Positions 1 through 5,196 of a stretch of DNA of 5,197 nt are shown here, one piece after another; position 1 is the first letter of the stretch; each line of letters opens with the position of its first letter. The position numbers and the translations under genes are program-made. Where the stretch lies: positions 1 to 5,197 of the forward strand of contig DLYJ01000024.1 of assembly GCA_003447785.1 (NCBI GenBank). The letters are read 5' to 3'. Source of the DNA: Treponema sp. Its GTDB lineage: Bacteria > Spirochaetota > Spirochaetia > Treponematales > Treponemataceae. Below the pieces are notes generated by a model that worked only from the letters and a program-made list of their open reading frames with translations, had not been told where the DNA came from and did no database searches.

Positions 1-155
1 GTGGGCGTTCTCTTCAAAAACAGCTCATCACCGCAAATGTCACCTATCAGCTTTCCTTTAAAATATACAAGGTATCCGCCCATCATAGATTTTATGACAA
101 TATCACCAGCTTCAGAAAAACAGTCGCGGACATATTCATTAAACTCATTCACCAT
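1..155 (-). CDS. TfoX N-terminal domain protein, partial (C-terminus off the left edge)
   Basis: Fifty-one codons are visible from an ATG at 155; the gene continues past base 1. The N-terminus starts MVNEFNEYV, and residues 24-48 carry the block typical of TfoX/Sxy N-terminal domains: MMGGYLVYF, then a GKLIGDI strand and DELFLK. The MMGGY turn and the LFLK end are what I recognise. Proteins with only this domain are common, small and mostly uncharacterised. The named family member, TfoX/Sxy, acts in competence regulation, but a competence role must not be assumed for a single-domain copy. The start is supported by a GGAG at 164-167 (read on the minus strand), 8 nt upstream. That ribosome site lies inside the last codons of the VOC gene, whose stop is 2 nt before this ATG, so the gene is the distal member of the operon and probably translationally coupled. 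Confidence 0.75.
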   Translation of the reverse strand, partial: MVNEFNEYVRDCFSEAGDIVIKSMMGGYLVYFKGKLIGDICGDELFLKRTP

Positions 156-157
156 AA

Positions 158-535
158 TTATCGCTCCATGAAAAATTCAATCTGTTCTCCAAGCGGCCCG
201 TAGCAAAATGCCATGCGGATTGGATATGGCGGATTTGAAGCGATGACTTTATCATTCGATTCTATAAAAACTTCGTAGCCTGCAGCCTTAACCTTTGACG
301 TGATTTCATCAACATCATCAGTAAGAAGGGCCATGTGACGAATTGCTCCAAGAGAATGAGTTCCCTCTGCATTTGTAAAAACCTCAAGCAGACCGTTTCC
401 CGTATCAATCATCAAACCTTCTTGCCATTCCCGAATGATTTTTAGACCAAGAAGCTCAATATAAAACTCTCGGACTTTTGTCAGCTCTTCTGCTGTTCCG
501 CATTTCATTGAAATATGGTGGATTCCTTTAATCAT
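158..535 (-). CDS. VOC family (glyoxalase/bleomycin-resistance/dioxygenase fold) protein
   Basis: A single-module vicinal-oxygen-chelate protein of 125 residues, the usual length for one module pair. It starts MIKGIHHIS. Counting from this ATG, putative metal ligands sit at the standard places: His6 in the first strand (GIHHIS), Glu51 in LLEVF, His67 in RHMALL and Glu120 in EQIEFF. All four are present, so an active metal site is plausible, but the substrate cannot be read from the sequence. Lactoylglutathione lyase-like, resistance and isomerase roles are all possible. A GTG at 541 would add two residues and overlap the GNAT stop as GTGA. I prefer the ATG at 535, because the strong ribosome site GGGGGAG (541-547) overlaps the GTG itself and lies 5 nt before the ATG. 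It sits between the GNAT and TfoX-like genes in one minus-strand operon. Confidence 0.88.
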   Translation of the reverse strand: MIKGIHHISMKCGTAEELTKVREFYIELLGLKIIREWQEGLMIDTGNGLLEVFTNAEGTHSLGAIRHMALLTDDVDEITSKVKAAGYEVFIESNDKVIASNPPYPIRMAFCYGPLGEQIEFFMER

Positions 536-537
536 TT

Positions 538-1008
538 TCACTCCCCCTGGGGAACATTCTCATTCAAACTTTTGTTCCGGTAATTAAGATTTGTTCTAAG
601 GGAATAACCTTCTCTTTCCCAAAAAGCATTTGCATCATCCTTATCCTTAAAAACAAGTCCAAAAATTTTACTGATGCCTTCTTTTTTCAAAGCCTCTTCT
701 GCTTCTTTTACAAGCTGACTTGCAATTCCCTGTCGCCGGAACGAAGGATGCACACACAAATGATGAATAATTGCCCGCCTTCCATCGTGACCTGTTAGAA
801 TCACCCCTACAACTTTTTGCTCATCCCCCGAACCATCCTCTGAAAGTGCCAGAAAACATGTATTGGGATTTCGTCTTAAGTAGCGTTCAATTCCTTCCCT
901 GCTGTTATCAACTGGATTCAAAGCTCTTCTACTTTGCTCCGTGCTGCACCAGAGCGAATAAATACTGTCATAGTCGTCAATCGTAACAAGTCTTGTTGTA
1001 ATGCTCAT
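538..1008 (-). CDS. GNAT family N-acetyltransferase
   Basis: A full-length GNAT protein of 156 residues. The acetyl-CoA binding motif A is clear: strand LCVHPSF at 84-90, then RRQGIAS at 91-97 (pyrophosphate loop, Q/R-x-x-G-x-A), followed by the helix QLVKEAEEAL. Motif B follows as KIFGLVF and DANAFWEREGY near 125-140. Upstream of motif A, VVGVILTGHDGRRAIIHH (66-83) resembles a clade of small bacterial acetyltransferases of unknown substrate, with RNPNTCFLAL (46-55) as a second conserved patch. The enzyme presumably moves an acetyl group from acetyl-CoA to an amine in the cytoplasm; nothing here shows the acceptor. The ATG at 1008 has a purine-rich GAGAAAG upstream and follows the stop of the 28-codon ORF by 2 nt. 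Its TGA stop lies 2 nt before the preferred start of the VOC gene. Confidence 0.9.
   Translation of the reverse strand: MSITTRLVTIDDYDSIYSLWCSTEQSRRALNPVDNSREGIERYLRRNPNTCFLALSEDGSGDEQKVVGVILTGHDGRRAIIHHLCVHPSFRRQGIASQLVKEAEEALKKEGISKIFGLVFKDKDDANAFWEREGYSLRTNLNYRNKSLNENVPQGE
541..547 (-). promoter_or_regulatory. Ribosome binding site GGGGGAG deciding the VOC start
   Basis: Read on the minus strand, GGGGGAG lies in the last codons of the GNAT gene and is 5 nt from the ATG at 535. It overlaps the in-frame GTG at 541, which makes that GTG an unlikely initiator. The location implies coupling with translation of the GNAT gene. Confidence 0.65.
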
Positions 1009-2416: not shown

Positions 2417-2464
2417 ATTACAATAAATTACAATAGCGTAACTTTTTCCAGTCTAAAATTACAA
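2417..2464 (+). repeat. Three ATTACAA direct repeats
   Basis: ATTACAA occurs at 2417-2423, 2427-2433 and 2458-2464, spaced 10 and 31 bp, close to whole helical turns. The first two continue as ATTACAATA. In such AT-rich DNA chance recurrence is possible. Helical phasing makes a protein-binding array worth considering. Confidence 0.35.
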
Positions 2465-2532
2465 ACTTTCGTACACATTCACAGAAATCATGTGATTTTT
2501 GGCAATTTTATGTATTAACATTTTATATACTC

Positions 2533-2619
2533 TGTATATACATTTTATATATTTTGTTTATCGAGTGTATATCTTTTGTATATTTCTTGTTTATCGTTTT
2601 ATTATACTTTGTATATTTT
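2533..2619 (+). repeat. 33-bp phased direct repeats, candidate centromere or operator array
   Basis: Two adjacent 33-bp units, 2554-2586 and 2587-2619, match at about 25 of 33 positions. Each begins TTGTTTATCG and ends near TTTGTATATTT. TGTATAT recurs at 2533, 2566, 2577 and 2610, spaced 33, 11 and 33 bp, so all copies face the same side of the helix within error. The array ends just before the promoter that would drive parA. In type Ib partition loci, arrays of this kind upstream of the ATPase gene are bound by the RHH protein, both as centromere and as operator; the role here is inferred from that. Confidence 0.5.
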
Positions 2620-2622
2620 GTC

Positions 2623-2651
2623 TTGCATTTTTCATATACATCGTTTATAAT
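2623..2651 (+). promoter_or_regulatory. Promoter of the parA operon
   Basis: TTGCAT (2623-2628) and a perfect TATAAT (2646-2651) are separated by 17 bp. The start would fall near 2658, at the left edge of the 30-bp palindrome, giving a leader of about 135 nt before parA. The TGTATAT repeats abut its upstream side. A weaker alternative is TATAAA at 2768-2773, which would leave a leader of under 20 nt and lacks a -35. Confidence 0.5.
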
Positions 2652-2689
2652 GTCTATACAGACATAAAAAACTGCAGTTTTTTATGTCT
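2650..2689. repeat. Perfect 30-bp palindrome plus overlapping 6-bp hairpin
   Basis: Bases 2660-2689 are a perfect palindrome centred on CTGCAG (2672-2677), with AGACATAAAAAA as left arm and its complement as right arm. ATGTCT at 2650-2655 also pairs with AGACAT at 2660-2665, so the left arm has two possible partners. It lies at the expected start of the parA transcript. It could be an operator, a partition site core, or a 5' RNA hairpin. It is followed by TCCTTGACTTG rather than a T-run, so a simple terminator is unlikely. Confidence 0.6.
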
Positions 2690-2704
2690 TCCTTGACTTG
2701 CGAT

Positions 2705-2736
2705 GTTTTAAGCCGCAGCATTTTGCGGATTAAAAC
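2705..2736 (+). repeat. Hairpin in the parA leader
   Basis: GTTTTAA (2705-2711) and CCGCA (2713-2717) pair with TGCGG (2724-2728) and TTAAAAC (2730-2736). This gives 12 base pairs with one internal G/A mismatch and a 6-nt loop. It lies within the predicted 5' leader between the promoter and parA. Confidence 0.5.
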
Positions 2737-2741
2737 TCGTC

Positions 2742-2757
2742 GCATTCGTGAGAATGC
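2742..2757 (+). repeat. Small hairpin with GTGA tetraloop before parA
   Basis: GCATTC (2742-2747) and GAATGC (2752-2757) form a perfect 6-bp stem closed by GTGA, which as RNA is a GNRA-type tetraloop. It lies about 25 nt before the parA ribosome site AGAGGG (2782-2787). Confidence 0.4.
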
Positions 2758-2791
2758 AACTATACTGTATAAACAAAGTTAAGAGGGAAAA

Positions 2792-3562
2792 ATGAAAACT
2801 TACACATTTGCCATTCAAAAGGGAGGAACCGGAAAAACTTCCGTATCTGTTTCAGTTGCTGTTGAACTTGCAAAACTCGGACGAACAATCTTAATCGACG
2901 CCGACCCTCAGGGAAATACCACAGACTGGATGAACCTTCCAAAACTGGAATATGAACTCTCTGACGTTCTTTCAGACAAATGCACAATCAAAGACGTAAT
3001 TCAGCCAACACAAGTCGAAAATCTTTTTATTATTCCTACAGCCGGAATCGACGGCGGACTTAGAACATATCAGGAAACAATCGCCCAGAAAGAGCAGTTC
3101 AAGCTGGCACAGCTTAAGAACGAACTTTCTGCCGCTTTTGACTACTGCGTAATCGATACTTCCCCGGCCTTTGGTGCTCTTGAAGAAAGCTGCTTTATTG
3201 CCAGCGACGAAGTAATCAACGTTCTTAAACTTGACCGTTTCAGCTACGACGGACTCAAGACCTTCAAGACAAACCTGGAGGCAATGAAGAAGCGCTACGA
3301 CAACTGCTATGGCGTAAGCGTAAAGGGCAAACCCTTCCTTCAAAAATTGATTCTGAATGAAAACAACAACGCCATTGCCCAGTGCCGTGACCTTGTAGCC
3401 CAATATAAGGCACTGGAGCCCAGCGGCTACAAGATTTTCGTCATTCCGACAGATACCGGCTTTAGAAAAGCCCAGACAACTTCAGTACCGGTGCAGGCAA
3501 TGGCAGGAACCAAAAAAGAAACCCTTTCCTCTCTTTCTGAAATCGCAGAGGCCTTAAAGTAG
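2792..3562 (+). CDS. parA: ParA/Soj-type partition ATPase
   Basis: A 256-residue ParA-superfamily ATPase that segregates DNA by ATP-dependent binding to the nucleoid. The deviant Walker A is KGGTGKTS (10-17) with signature Lys10 and Lys15. Walker A' is IDADPQGNT (35-43), and Walker B is CVIDTSP (119-125). The protein starts at the first strand (MKTYTFAIQ), with no N-terminal HTH, so it is of the short class (type Ib, ParF/Soj-like). Such proteins leave DNA recognition to a partner. That partner is probably the RHH protein whose gene begins 28 nt downstream. AGAGGG (2782-2787) supports the ATG, and the upstream promoter, palindrome and phased repeats suggest autoregulation. A MinD or Mrp role is unlikely, as I see neither a C-terminal amphipathic helix nor a cysteine pair. 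It could serve a plasmid, an ICE or, less likely, the chromosome. Confidence 0.9.
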   Translation: MKTYTFAIQKGGTGKTSVSVSVAVELAKLGRTILIDADPQGNTTDWMNLPKLEYELSDVLSDKCTIKDVIQPTQVENLFIIPTAGIDGGLRTYQETIAQKEQFKLAQLKNELSAAFDYCVIDTSPAFGALEESCFIASDEVINVLKLDRFSYDGLKTFKTNLEAMKKRYDNCYGVSVKGKPFLQKLILNENNNAIAQCRDLVAQYKALEPSGYKIFVIPTDTGFRKAQTTSVPVQAMAGTKKETLSSLSEIAEALK

Positions 3563-3590
3563 GCTAGGGCAGTTTTTAGGAGATAGAACA

Positions 3591-3995
3591 ATGCAGAAAG
3601 TACAGCCAGCTAAAAACACTTTTGACATGGATTTTTTGAATGCTTTTGATAAGCCAATCGGAGGAGCAGCATCAACAGCGACTTCTCCAACGGCCAGCCA
3701 ACCTGTAAAAATCGAAGCAAAGGCAGAGCCTGTTACGGAAATAGATCCGACATCAAGCATGGAAGATGAATTCGATTCTTCAGAAATCAGCATAGAAGAC
3801 GAGATTCCGGTTTCCAGGGCAATCAAGGCAACACAGATTGTTGTCCGCACGACAGAAAAGGAGCGAGAAGCCTTAAAGTCATATTTTATGAAGCACGGAG
3901 TGTCTCTTTCAAAGGGAATCAAGATTGCAATCAAATATCTTGAGCAGCAGGAGAAAAAAGGACTTGTTCATTTCTCTGATATAGGTCTTTACTAG
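3591..3995 (+). CDS. Small RHH-like DNA-binding protein, putative centromere-binding partner of ParA
   Basis: A 134-residue protein that I do not recognise by sequence identity. Its C-terminal 40 residues look like a ribbon-helix-helix domain: strand ATQIVVR (80-86), helix EKEREALKSYFMKHG (89-103), then SLSKGIKIAIKYLEQQ (105-120) as the second helix. The first 75 residues look disordered, rich in Ala, Ser, Thr and Pro, and strongly acidic at 58-71. A short conserved-looking segment, NTFDMDFLNAFDKP (9-22), may be a contact peptide. This layout of flexible tail plus RHH fits ParG and omega-type partners of short ParA proteins, which bind upstream repeats and stimulate the ATPase through the tail. 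I see no obvious arginine finger in the tail (the first Arg is 76), which is unusual. AGGAGA (3578-3583) marks the start. It is probably co-transcribed with parA. Confidence 0.6.
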   Translation: MQKVQPAKNTFDMDFLNAFDKPIGGAASTATSPTASQPVKIEAKAEPVTEIDPTSSMEDEFDSSEISIEDEIPVSRAIKATQIVVRTTEKEREALKSYFMKHGVSLSKGIKIAIKYLEQQEKKGLVHFSDIGLY

Positions 3996-4008
3996 GAGCG
4001 CAAAATCC

Positions 4009-5133
4009 ATGGACGAAAACAAAAACAACTTGCCGGAGACCTCCAAAAAGGGAAACATCAAAAACGCTGATGACAAGAGCAAATTCTTCAGTTTTCCAAA
4101 CAGTCCGGCCTCAAACACAATGATTAATGTGGTAAGCCATGCCGGAAATCTTGAAACATTTGCCAACCGACTTGAAAACAACAGCCACTCAAGCCAGCTG
4201 GAATTCTTCACGCCCCCGGACGGAACCCAGAAAAATTTAAGCCAGCGGGTAAAATATTCAACCGACAACACAGAAACGACGATTCACCTTGATAACATCG
4301 ACCTTTTTACCAAGGCAAACAAACCTCTCAAAAAAATCCTCACATACACGCTGGTAAAACTCAGCAAGGAAAATGTCACGGAAAATCTTTCCCAGGACAT
4401 CAGCATAAAATTTCCTCTGGAGGACTTCGTTGACCTGGGCTGCTACAAGACCCTGAGAACCGCACGGCAGGCATTCAATCAGGCAAAAAATCCTCTCACC
4501 AGCATAAAAATTGAGGGCATTGTCCGGGATAAAAAAGACATGAAACAGATTACAGACAGCGGAATCGAAGTTCTCTTCACCGGCGCCCACATCAAAAACG
4601 GAATCGTCGAAATCTTCCTGAACAAGCGAATAAACTGGGAAGTCTTTGCCCTTCAATATTTCTCAATTCTGCCAAAGACATATTTCTCCCTTTCCGACAA
4701 CGCGGCCGACACTCTGCTCAACATAGTCATGCTGGCTCGAAAACGCCTTAACGACATCGGAAAAAACGGCTTCTTCAACATGAGATTTAAAACCATGCAG
4801 CAAATTCTGGATTTGCCGGACGAAAAACTCACAAAAAACCCCGGACGAGACATCAAGGAGCCAATCCTCAATGCAATCTCAGAAATCTCGCAAATGGAAA
4901 ACGGAGACATTGTCATCGAGCCGATTTTCAACTCGAACGGAAACATCATAGAATTTCTTGAGGAAGGCTACGCAAAAATTTCCCTTCACAACGAATACCT
5001 GGAATATTTTGATGACCTTGCGAAAACAAAGAAAAACAAGATTGAAAACACCATTAAAAAAAGGGAAGAGATTGCAGAGCGTGCAAAAGTCAAGGTTCTG
5101 GCCAGTAAGCTGGAGAGAGAGGTAAAAGACTGA
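4009..5133 (+). CDS. Putative plasmid-type replication initiator protein
   Basis: A 374-residue protein encoded 13 nt after the RHH gene, with AGGAG (3994-3998) overlapping that gene's stop. Residues 1-90 are polar and probably disordered. From 95 to 305 it resembles the paired winged-helix layout of Rep_3-like initiators: NKPLKKILTYTLVKLS (104-119), LEDFVDLGCYKTLRTARQAF (137-156, a recognition-helix-like stretch), then strands 163-205. A second unit follows: ALQYFSILPKTYFSLS (214-229), NIVMLARKRL (238-247) and FKTMQQILDLP (260-270). The C-terminus (338-374) is a basic charged helix. I infer DNA binding at an origin; the resemblance is one of pattern and is not certain. A module-specific regulator or partition accessory factor is the main alternative. 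Position after parA and an RHH gene, and repeats just downstream, support a replication role. Confidence 0.5.
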   Translation: MDENKNNLPETSKKGNIKNADDKSKFFSFPNSPASNTMINVVSHAGNLETFANRLENNSHSSQLEFFTPPDGTQKNLSQRVKYSTDNTETTIHLDNIDLFTKANKPLKKILTYTLVKLSKENVTENLSQDISIKFPLEDFVDLGCYKTLRTARQAFNQAKNPLTSIKIEGIVRDKKDMKQITDSGIEVLFTGAHIKNGIVEIFLNKRINWEVFALQYFSILPKTYFSLSDNAADTLLNIVMLARKRLNDIGKNGFFNMRFKTMQQILDLPDEKLTKNPGRDIKEPILNAISEISQMENGDIVIEPIFNSNGNIIEFLEEGYAKISLHNEYLEYFDDLAKTKKNKIENTIKKREEIAERAKVKVLASKLEREVKD

Positions 5134-5146
5134 AAGGAATAATCTG

Positions 5147-5196
5147 CGTGGAAAAATGATTTTATATTGAAGAAAAGTCATATTTTACGTGGAAAA
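5147..5196. repeat. CGTGGAAAA direct repeats after the rep-like gene
   Basis: CGTGGAAAA occurs at 5147-5155 and 5188-5196, 41 bp apart. On the minus strand it reads TTTTCCACG, which matches the DnaA box TTATCCACA at 7 of 9 positions. Between the copies, ATGATTTT (5156-5163) can pair imperfectly with AAAAGTCAT (5173-5181). The array may continue past the window edge. It could be the start of an iteron or DnaA-box origin; with two copies this is tentative. Confidence 0.4.

What the first reader, a model, noticed from the sequence alone, without database searches (positions are those of the whole stretch)
2417..5196. Candidate undescribed partition/replication module: phased repeats, palindrome, ParA, RHH protein, initiator-like protein
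One compact plus-strand unit contains a candidate centromere, a short ParA, a small acidic-tailed RHH-like protein and a putative initiator, ending in CGTGGAAAA repeats. The order fits type Ib partition logic (ParF/ParG named as analogy), but the second and third proteins are not ones I recognise. A replication gene in the same operon as the partition pair would link copy control and segregation. sfsA and metabolic genes lie beside it, so it is either an integrated element or part of a large secondary replicon.
Basis: partly seen in the sequence, partly recalled or inferred. Interest (0 to 1): 0.72.

Follow-up and report, generated by a model that had tools for sequence, protein, structure and literature searches.

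The report
Treponema plasmid copy-and-share operon
This piece of a Treponema genome holds, in one row, a ParA-type ATPase gene, a gene for a predicted ribbon-helix-helix DNA-binding protein and a gene for a predicted replication starter, with repeats before and after them; together they likely copy a large plasmid and share it between daughter cells, and a gene row of the same build sits on the circular Treponema plasmid pTRESU01.

The parts
2511..2622 (+). Array of 11-bp units (TGTATAT, TGTTTAT or TTTATAT plus 4 nt), candidate centromere and operator
   Evidence: lag-11 z 5.1, 0 of 500 shuffles; repeats upstream of parA in many relatives. Binding is inferred.
2623..2651 (+). Promoter-like site TTGCAT-17-TATAAT beside the array: perfect second hexamer, first hexamer only 3 of 6
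   Evidence: pattern match; similar sequence in close relatives. The stricter scan did not list it.
2660..2770 (+). Leader insertion of about 100 nt with the 30-bp palindrome (2660-2689) and further hairpins; not part of the conserved module
   Evidence: RNA fold of 2650-2800 z -5.4; shortened in L003, absent from L004-L008, L010, L011 and L059; no second full copy in the genome
2792..3562 (+). ParA-type ATPase, 256 aa, deviant Walker A (KGGTGKT) from residue 10, no N-terminal HTH
   Evidence: AAA_31 E 1.1e-30; PHROG ParA-like 2.4e-37; Soj 1.1e-17, Borrelia PF-32 1.3e-8 and ParF 1.3e-6 by sequence in PDB
3591..3995 (+). 134-aa protein: N-terminal half without predicted structure, C-terminal RHH-like domain (about 81-123); likely centromere-binding protein and repressor
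   Evidence: Family profile A3 hits 2kel 6.4e-9 and ParG 0.018 in PDB; two helices 89-101 and 106-123, no strand in the model; 23 of 30 weak Foldseek hits are RHH proteins as I know their names
4009..5133 (+). 374-aa replication initiator, two-winged-helix fold of the Pi/RepE/RctB kind
5132..5153 (+). Iteron 1 (22 bp, core GCGTGG), degenerate
5173..5194 (+). Iteron 2 (AAAAGTCATATTTTACGTGGAA); array cut by the contig end
   Evidence: L002, whose Rep is 99% identical, carries 7 core copies and then a primase-helicase gene

Best explanation
The ParA, small-protein and 374-aa genes lie in one compact same-strand row between an 11-bp phased repeat array and the start of a second repeat array, and they likely form the replication and partition core of a large Treponema plasmid. 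Likely working: the RHH protein binds the phased array as a chain of dimers, forms the partition complex and represses the promoter beside the array; ParA moves the complex over the nucleoid; Rep binds the 22-bp iterons behind its own gene and opens the origin, and the plasmid's own primase-helicase (next gene in relatives) is brought in. Because rep would be the last gene of the repressed operon, the RHH protein would also limit Rep supply, tying copy number to segregation. Shown: the genes, the arrays, their co-occurrence, and the fold match of a low-confidence Rep model. Inferred: one transcript, binding, repression, partition, replication.
Against: The window's contig is 5197 bp, without terminal overlap, and its left half holds TfoX-like, glyoxalase, GNAT and sfsA genes. 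Neither the plasmid primase-helicase (only weak matches of 27-29% identity) nor a VirB4-like ATPase of pTRESU01 was found in the window's genome, which is 75% complete. The window's Rep hits no Pfam model; 2 of 25 A1 members hit Rep3_N. Mean pLDDT is 58.8 for the Rep model and 60.8 for the RHH model, which lacks the strand. A TTWTNCACA DnaA box occurs in only 3 of 11 origin-side regions. In one search no significant 11-bp period was found for L003 (contig begins 199 bp before parA), L059, L109 (28 of 500), L118, L142 and L150. Rep relatives L142 and L150 have 0 and 2 iteron cores. No match to Rep among PLSDB plasmids.
Confidence: 0.85

Rival explanations
1. The module is part of an element integrated in the chromosome (integrative conjugative element or plasmid cointegrate), and rep is used only in an excised stage.
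For: sfsA, GNAT and glyoxalase genes flank it. A ParA of the family lies at 774 kb in the single 2.74-Mb contig of G044. The sfsA side matches G025:C34 at 89% and 98% DNA identity in two pieces.
Against: The G044 locus has a third gene of cluster c2, which hits no initiator model. Relatives lie on circular plasmids and on a contig with transfer genes like those of pTRESU01. pTS1 and pTS2 carry metabolic genes next to the module too, so such neighbours do not point to a chromosome.
Confidence: 0.12
2. The small RHH protein is only an operon repressor, and the phased array is only its operator; partition is not its role.
For: The weak structure hits are largely repressors and antitoxins. The array adjoins the promoter-like site. 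In Borrelia a region with a ParA-family (PF32) gene affects copy number and is not shown to partition (PMC9039534, passages).
Against: ParG is among the few profile hits (0.018); the RHH gene stays with ParA at 83 of 92 loci; type Ib proteins are both repressor and centromere binder (PMC5016525, passages).
Confidence: 0.15
3. The row is a remnant without function.
For: Some genomes of the genus have only partial Rep matches.
Against: All three window frames are open; Rep has 116 invariant columns in 25 sequences and the RHH domain is nearly invariant among near relatives.
Confidence: 0.03

Closest known systems
T. succinifaciens plasmid pTRESU01 (NC_015386.1, 165,572 bp, circular), 150337-152494
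   Same: ParA (43%), RHH-family protein, then an initiator-type gene, same order; divergent ParA2-ParB pair upstream as in T. bryantii, L004, L010 and L011
   Different: Third gene is RepA_C-type, without detectable relation to the window's Rep; no primase-helicase annotated next to it
Type Ib partition systems (TP228 ParF-ParG-parH; pSM19035 delta-omega)
   Same: Short ParA without HTH, small RHH protein with an N-terminal half without predicted structure, repeats upstream of the operon (PMC5016525 passages)
   Different: 11-bp phased repeats, initiator as third gene of the row, no conserved N-terminal arginine among 25 near relatives
Iteron initiators of the Rep_3 / Pi / RepE / RctB kind
   Same: Two-winged-helix fold and iterons next to the gene
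   Different: No Pfam hit for the window's protein; long N-terminal stretch of low confidence; 22-bp iteron with ACGTGG core; primase-helicase gene after the array in relatives
Borrelia PF32/PF49/PF50/PF57-62 plasmid gene clusters
   Same: Spirochaete plasmids with ParA-like (PF32) and initiator (PF57/62) genes clustered (PMC9039534 passages); the window ParA hits the PF-32 structure at 1.3e-8
   Different: ParA about 28% identical; whether PF49/PF50 resemble the RHH protein, or PF57/62 the Rep, was not compared
repABC operons of alphaproteobacteria (recalled)
   Same: Two partition genes followed by an initiator gene in one operon
   Different: ParB is not an RHH protein and RepC is another initiator family; recalled, not tested

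Membership tests
Type Ib partition system | Short ParA without N-terminal HTH, deviant Walker A | tested here: met
   256 aa, Walker A from residue 10, AAA_31 over 1-170
Type Ib partition system | Small RHH protein encoded next to parA | tested here: met
   A3 profile to 2kel 6.4e-9 and ParG 0.018; two helices but no strand in the model; Pfam hits of the window protein below cut-off. Fold only; binding untested.
Type Ib partition system | Repeats upstream of the par operon | tested here: met
Type Ib partition system | Conserved arginine finger in the N-terminal tail | tested here: not met
   No invariant or nearly invariant arginine before residue 86 in the 25 rows of A2; invariant lysines 3, 8 and 21. 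Hence 'works like', not filed as a member.
Type Ib partition system | Partition activity and binding to the repeats | not testable with these tools
   needs bench work
Rep_3/Pi/RepE iteron initiators | Two winged-helix domains | tested here: met
Rep_3/Pi/RepE iteron initiators | Curated Pfam score (Rep3_N) | tested here: inconclusive
   No hit for the window protein, L142 or L150; 34.4 bits against cut-off 22.4 for L109 of the same cluster
Rep_3/Pi/RepE iteron initiators | Iterons beside the gene | tested here: met
   2 in the window before its end, 6-12 on the plus strand in each of L002-L011, 2 plus and 5 minus in L059
Rep_3/Pi/RepE iteron initiators | DnaA boxes at the origin | tested here: inconclusive
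   TTWTNCACA in 3 of 11 regions; other box forms not tried
Phage-borne replicon | Occurs in viral contigs | tested here: inconclusive
   A1 scan of IMG/VR with two short peptide patterns: 138 stretches matched, none confirmed

The most novel reading that the evidence does not exclude
In Treponema one partition cassette (phased array, ParA, RHH repressor) has become the common chassis of large plasmids, onto which replication starters of at least three separate sequence groups were fitted as third gene; the same RHH repressor thus sets both segregation and copy number whatever the starter is, and the window's branch adds its own primase-helicase to depend less on the host.
Probability: 0.35. 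Interest if true: 0.65.

Novelty: new variant of a known kind. Interest (0 to 1): 0.5.

Why it matters
Treponema plasmids are little studied: 0 papers in the held open-licence library name pTRESU01, and the one paper holding both 'Treponema bryantii' and 'megaplasmid' is about plasmid-borne rRNA operons. A defined rep-par-origin unit would give a basis for plasmid typing and for shuttle vectors in gut treponemes. Different initiators behind one partition cassette make it testable whether a partition repressor can control copy number independently of the initiator it is joined to.

Tried and rejected
Repeated initiator swapping: a quick ParA tree of 78 rows needs 7 changes of initiator type, but with five long-branch rows left out it needs 4 (the least possible is 3), and AU tests do not reject one ParA clade for the window's Rep type (p 0.63) or for RepA_C (p 0.79). 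So frequent swapping is not shown; a few replacements are needed.

Plasmid-compatibility sorting: 1 of 36 within-genome ParA pairs is at least 55% identical against a permutation mean of 4.4, with 12 of 300 permutations as low; at 50% and 70% cut-offs 71 and 33 of 300. Suggestive only.

The palindrome as a conserved centromere or operator was rejected because most relatives lack it; it has no second full copy in the genome. No Rfam family reaches its cut-off in the window.

PDB sequence search with the Rep profile found nothing up to E 1; PLSDB tblastn with Rep found nothing (the tool says records near the window's genome may be left out); a phylum draw of 198 genomes gave only the window's own. 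The viral-contig scan confirmed nothing.

Cluster c2 third genes were not taken as initiators: the two scanned of seven (L076, L079) have only weak HTH or ParB_N hits, and 0 of 7 c2 loci has a significant upstream array.
Full report
What is there. The window is a whole contig, C231 (5197 bp), of an assembly of 2.03 Mb in 267 contigs, 75% complete; its nearest named relatives are Treponema. From left: a TfoX-like gene fragment on the reverse strand (my reading), a glyoxalase-family gene, a GNAT gene, sfsA, then the module: an 11-bp phased array, a promoter-like site, ParA, a 134-aa protein, a 374-aa protein and two CGTGGAAAA repeats, the second ending one base before the contig end. The three genes are 28 and 13 bp apart, with AGGAG sites before genes two and three.

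The origin. Behind rep, relatives carry 0.5-1.0 kb of AT-rich DNA with direct repeats of the form AAAAGTCATATTTTACGTGGGA. The core [AG]CGTGG occurs on the plus strand 7 times in L002 (Rep 99% identical to the window's), 6 in L003 and L007, 10 in L004, L006 and L008, 12 in L005, 9 in L009-L011, 2 (plus 5 on the minus strand) in L059, 8, 6 and 8 in L105, L109 and L118, 0 in L142 and 2 in L150; shuffle means are 0.01-0.17. In L009-L011 the left half of the unit is GGACTTTTG or GGACTTTTT in place of GTCATATTTT. After the array a hairpin is kept in 9 aligned relatives with paired changes: 94.9% of cells paired, 9 cells changed on both sides against a shuffled mean of 2.9; further pair types do not exceed the shuffles (233 of 500). 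Then comes a protein of about 670 aa; the L010 copy has zinc-finger, Toprim and DnaB_C domains, a primase-helicase. The window is cut after its second iteron.

The 134-aa protein. Alone it gives only weak hits (DUF6290 0.0033). A 32-member family alignment (A3) matches 2kel at 6.4e-9 and ParG at 0.018 in the PDB; that 2kel is an RHH repressor is recalled. Its members scanned singly give RHH_10 in 1 of 32 (1.3e-5, below the cut-off). The model shows two helices at 89-101 and 106-123 and no strand, and 23 of 30 weak Foldseek matches, none better than E 1.3, are RHH proteins as I know their names. Near relatives keep an N-terminal motif (MQK.QPAKN....MDFL) with no conserved arginine.

The array. 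Over 2511-2622, lag 11 has z 5.1, and 0 of 500 shuffles reach it. The same test on the stretch -200 to -40 gives at most 1 of 500 in L004-L008, L010 and L105; it is not significant in L003, L059, L109, L118, L142 and L150. A broader scan (lags 7-33) over ParA loci finds repeats (at most 2 of 200 shuffles) at 56 of 86 upstream regions and at 4 of 92 stretches inside parA; by third-gene type 37 of 48 RepA_C, 12 of 15 window type, 2 of 7 Rep3, 0 of 7 c2, 5 of 9 others. Commonest lags are 12, 33, 11, 22 and 21. pTS2 reaches 0 of 200 (lag 11) and pTS1 2 of 200 (lag 23). pTRESU01 is in the set twice and is borderline: 1 of 200 as L061, 5 of 200 as L110 (lag 33).

Genus-wide pattern. In 146 genomes of the genus, Rep matched in 15 genomes at 19 places, RHH in 17, ParA (E up to 1e-30) in 60. 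Of the 19 Rep places, 17 have a ParA on the same contig just upstream. The locus set is 86 of the 87 ParA places (G003 was left out), plus L003, L007, G070:C64 and three plasmid records: 92 loci with ParA; one more fetched locus, L149, had none. 87 have an ORF of 80-190 aa at once downstream; 83 of these 87 fall in one RHH family by iterated profile. 84 have a 250-450-aa third ORF, in clusters of 50, 17 (the window's), 7 and 7 and three singletons; the window's cluster shows no relation to the others by hhalign (probability under 2%). Of the 50-cluster I scanned 7 (pTRESU01 and 6 representatives): all hit RepA_C, 6 at or above its cut-off and 1 below. Of one 7-cluster (c3) I scanned 3: all hit Rep3_N and Rep3_C, so it and the window's type may be distant kin in fold. 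Of the other (c2) I scanned 2, with no initiator hit. The pTS2 third gene hits nothing; the pTS1 one hits HTH and DnaD_N models. So the ParA-RHH pair is shared and the third gene differs. Trees do not show frequent exchange.

Plasmid or not. pTS2 (381,873 bp), pTS1 (423,813 bp) and pTRESU01 (165,572 bp) are circular and carry the ParA family. T. bryantii XBD1002 carries the window's type on a 240,269-bp contig without an exact terminal overlap of 20-299 bases; that contig shares with pTRESU01 eight type IV secretion genes (72-91%; one of them annotated only as ATPase and read by me as VirB4-like), a topoisomerase (59%), ParB (56%) and ParA2 (41%). Anda et al. 2023 (PMC10645730; outline and passages) list 4 replicons or scaffolds for T. 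saccharophilum and 2 for the T. bryantii type strain, and report Rep_3 genes on plasmids that carry the only rRNA operons; the passages I saw do not describe this module. The window's own genome shows neither the primase-helicase beyond weak matches nor the VirB4-like ATPase, so the rest of its replicon is not in the assembly. I did not test the T. bryantii contig for chromosomal marker genes beyond 16S rRNA, which was not found in that assembly at all.

Literature. In the listings of searches no title or abstract start describes a ParA-RHH-Rep module in Treponema; the library holds open-licence papers only. Type Ib facts come from PMC5016525 (passages), Borrelia facts from PMC9039534 (passages).

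Verdict: a real, apparently intact replication-partition module, most likely of a large plasmid; a new variant of a known kind.

Noticed in passing
L002:2850-3015, L004:5235-5410 and relatives (outside the window): Conserved block between iterons and primase-helicase gene: nearly invariant CCTAAGAGCT...AGCTATAT stretch and a hairpin with paired changes; may be the opening site or a control element.
   Followed up: partly
window 2660-2770: About 100-nt leader insertion with hairpins (RNA fold z -5.4), present here and in shortened form in L003, absent in the other relatives read.
   Followed up: partly
L059:9161-9964; L150 between RHH and Rep genes: An extra ORF of 267-270 aa sits between the RHH and Rep genes; the L059 one hits no Pfam family.
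   Followed up: no
G044:C1:773823-774569 (L079): A ParA of this family inside the single 2.74-Mb contig of one genome, followed further down by a c2 third gene with a weak ParB_N hit; possibly an integrated or chromosomal form.
   Followed up: partly
L008, L004, L010, L011 and pTRESU01, left of parA: A second, divergent ParA gene and a ParB_N-like gene lie beside the module, with SSB genes further on in L010: two partition systems side by side.
   Followed up: partly
L007 (JAKSVU010000040.1): A contig with the module is binned under an 'Alphaproteobacteria bacterium' title from horse faeces; a mis-binned Treponema plasmid or a wider host range.
   Followed up: no
window 1-159: TfoX-like gene end that matches G032, G015 and G004 at 93-94% DNA identity while the neighbouring genes do not match there.
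   Followed up: no
window 140-538 and G000:C248:16746-17144: The glyoxalase gene has a second copy in the same genome at 84% DNA identity.
   Followed up: no
L004, L005, L006, L008, L010 upstream of the main array: A second block of similar AT-rich repeats lies further upstream of parA in relatives; I see no such block in the window.
   Followed up: no
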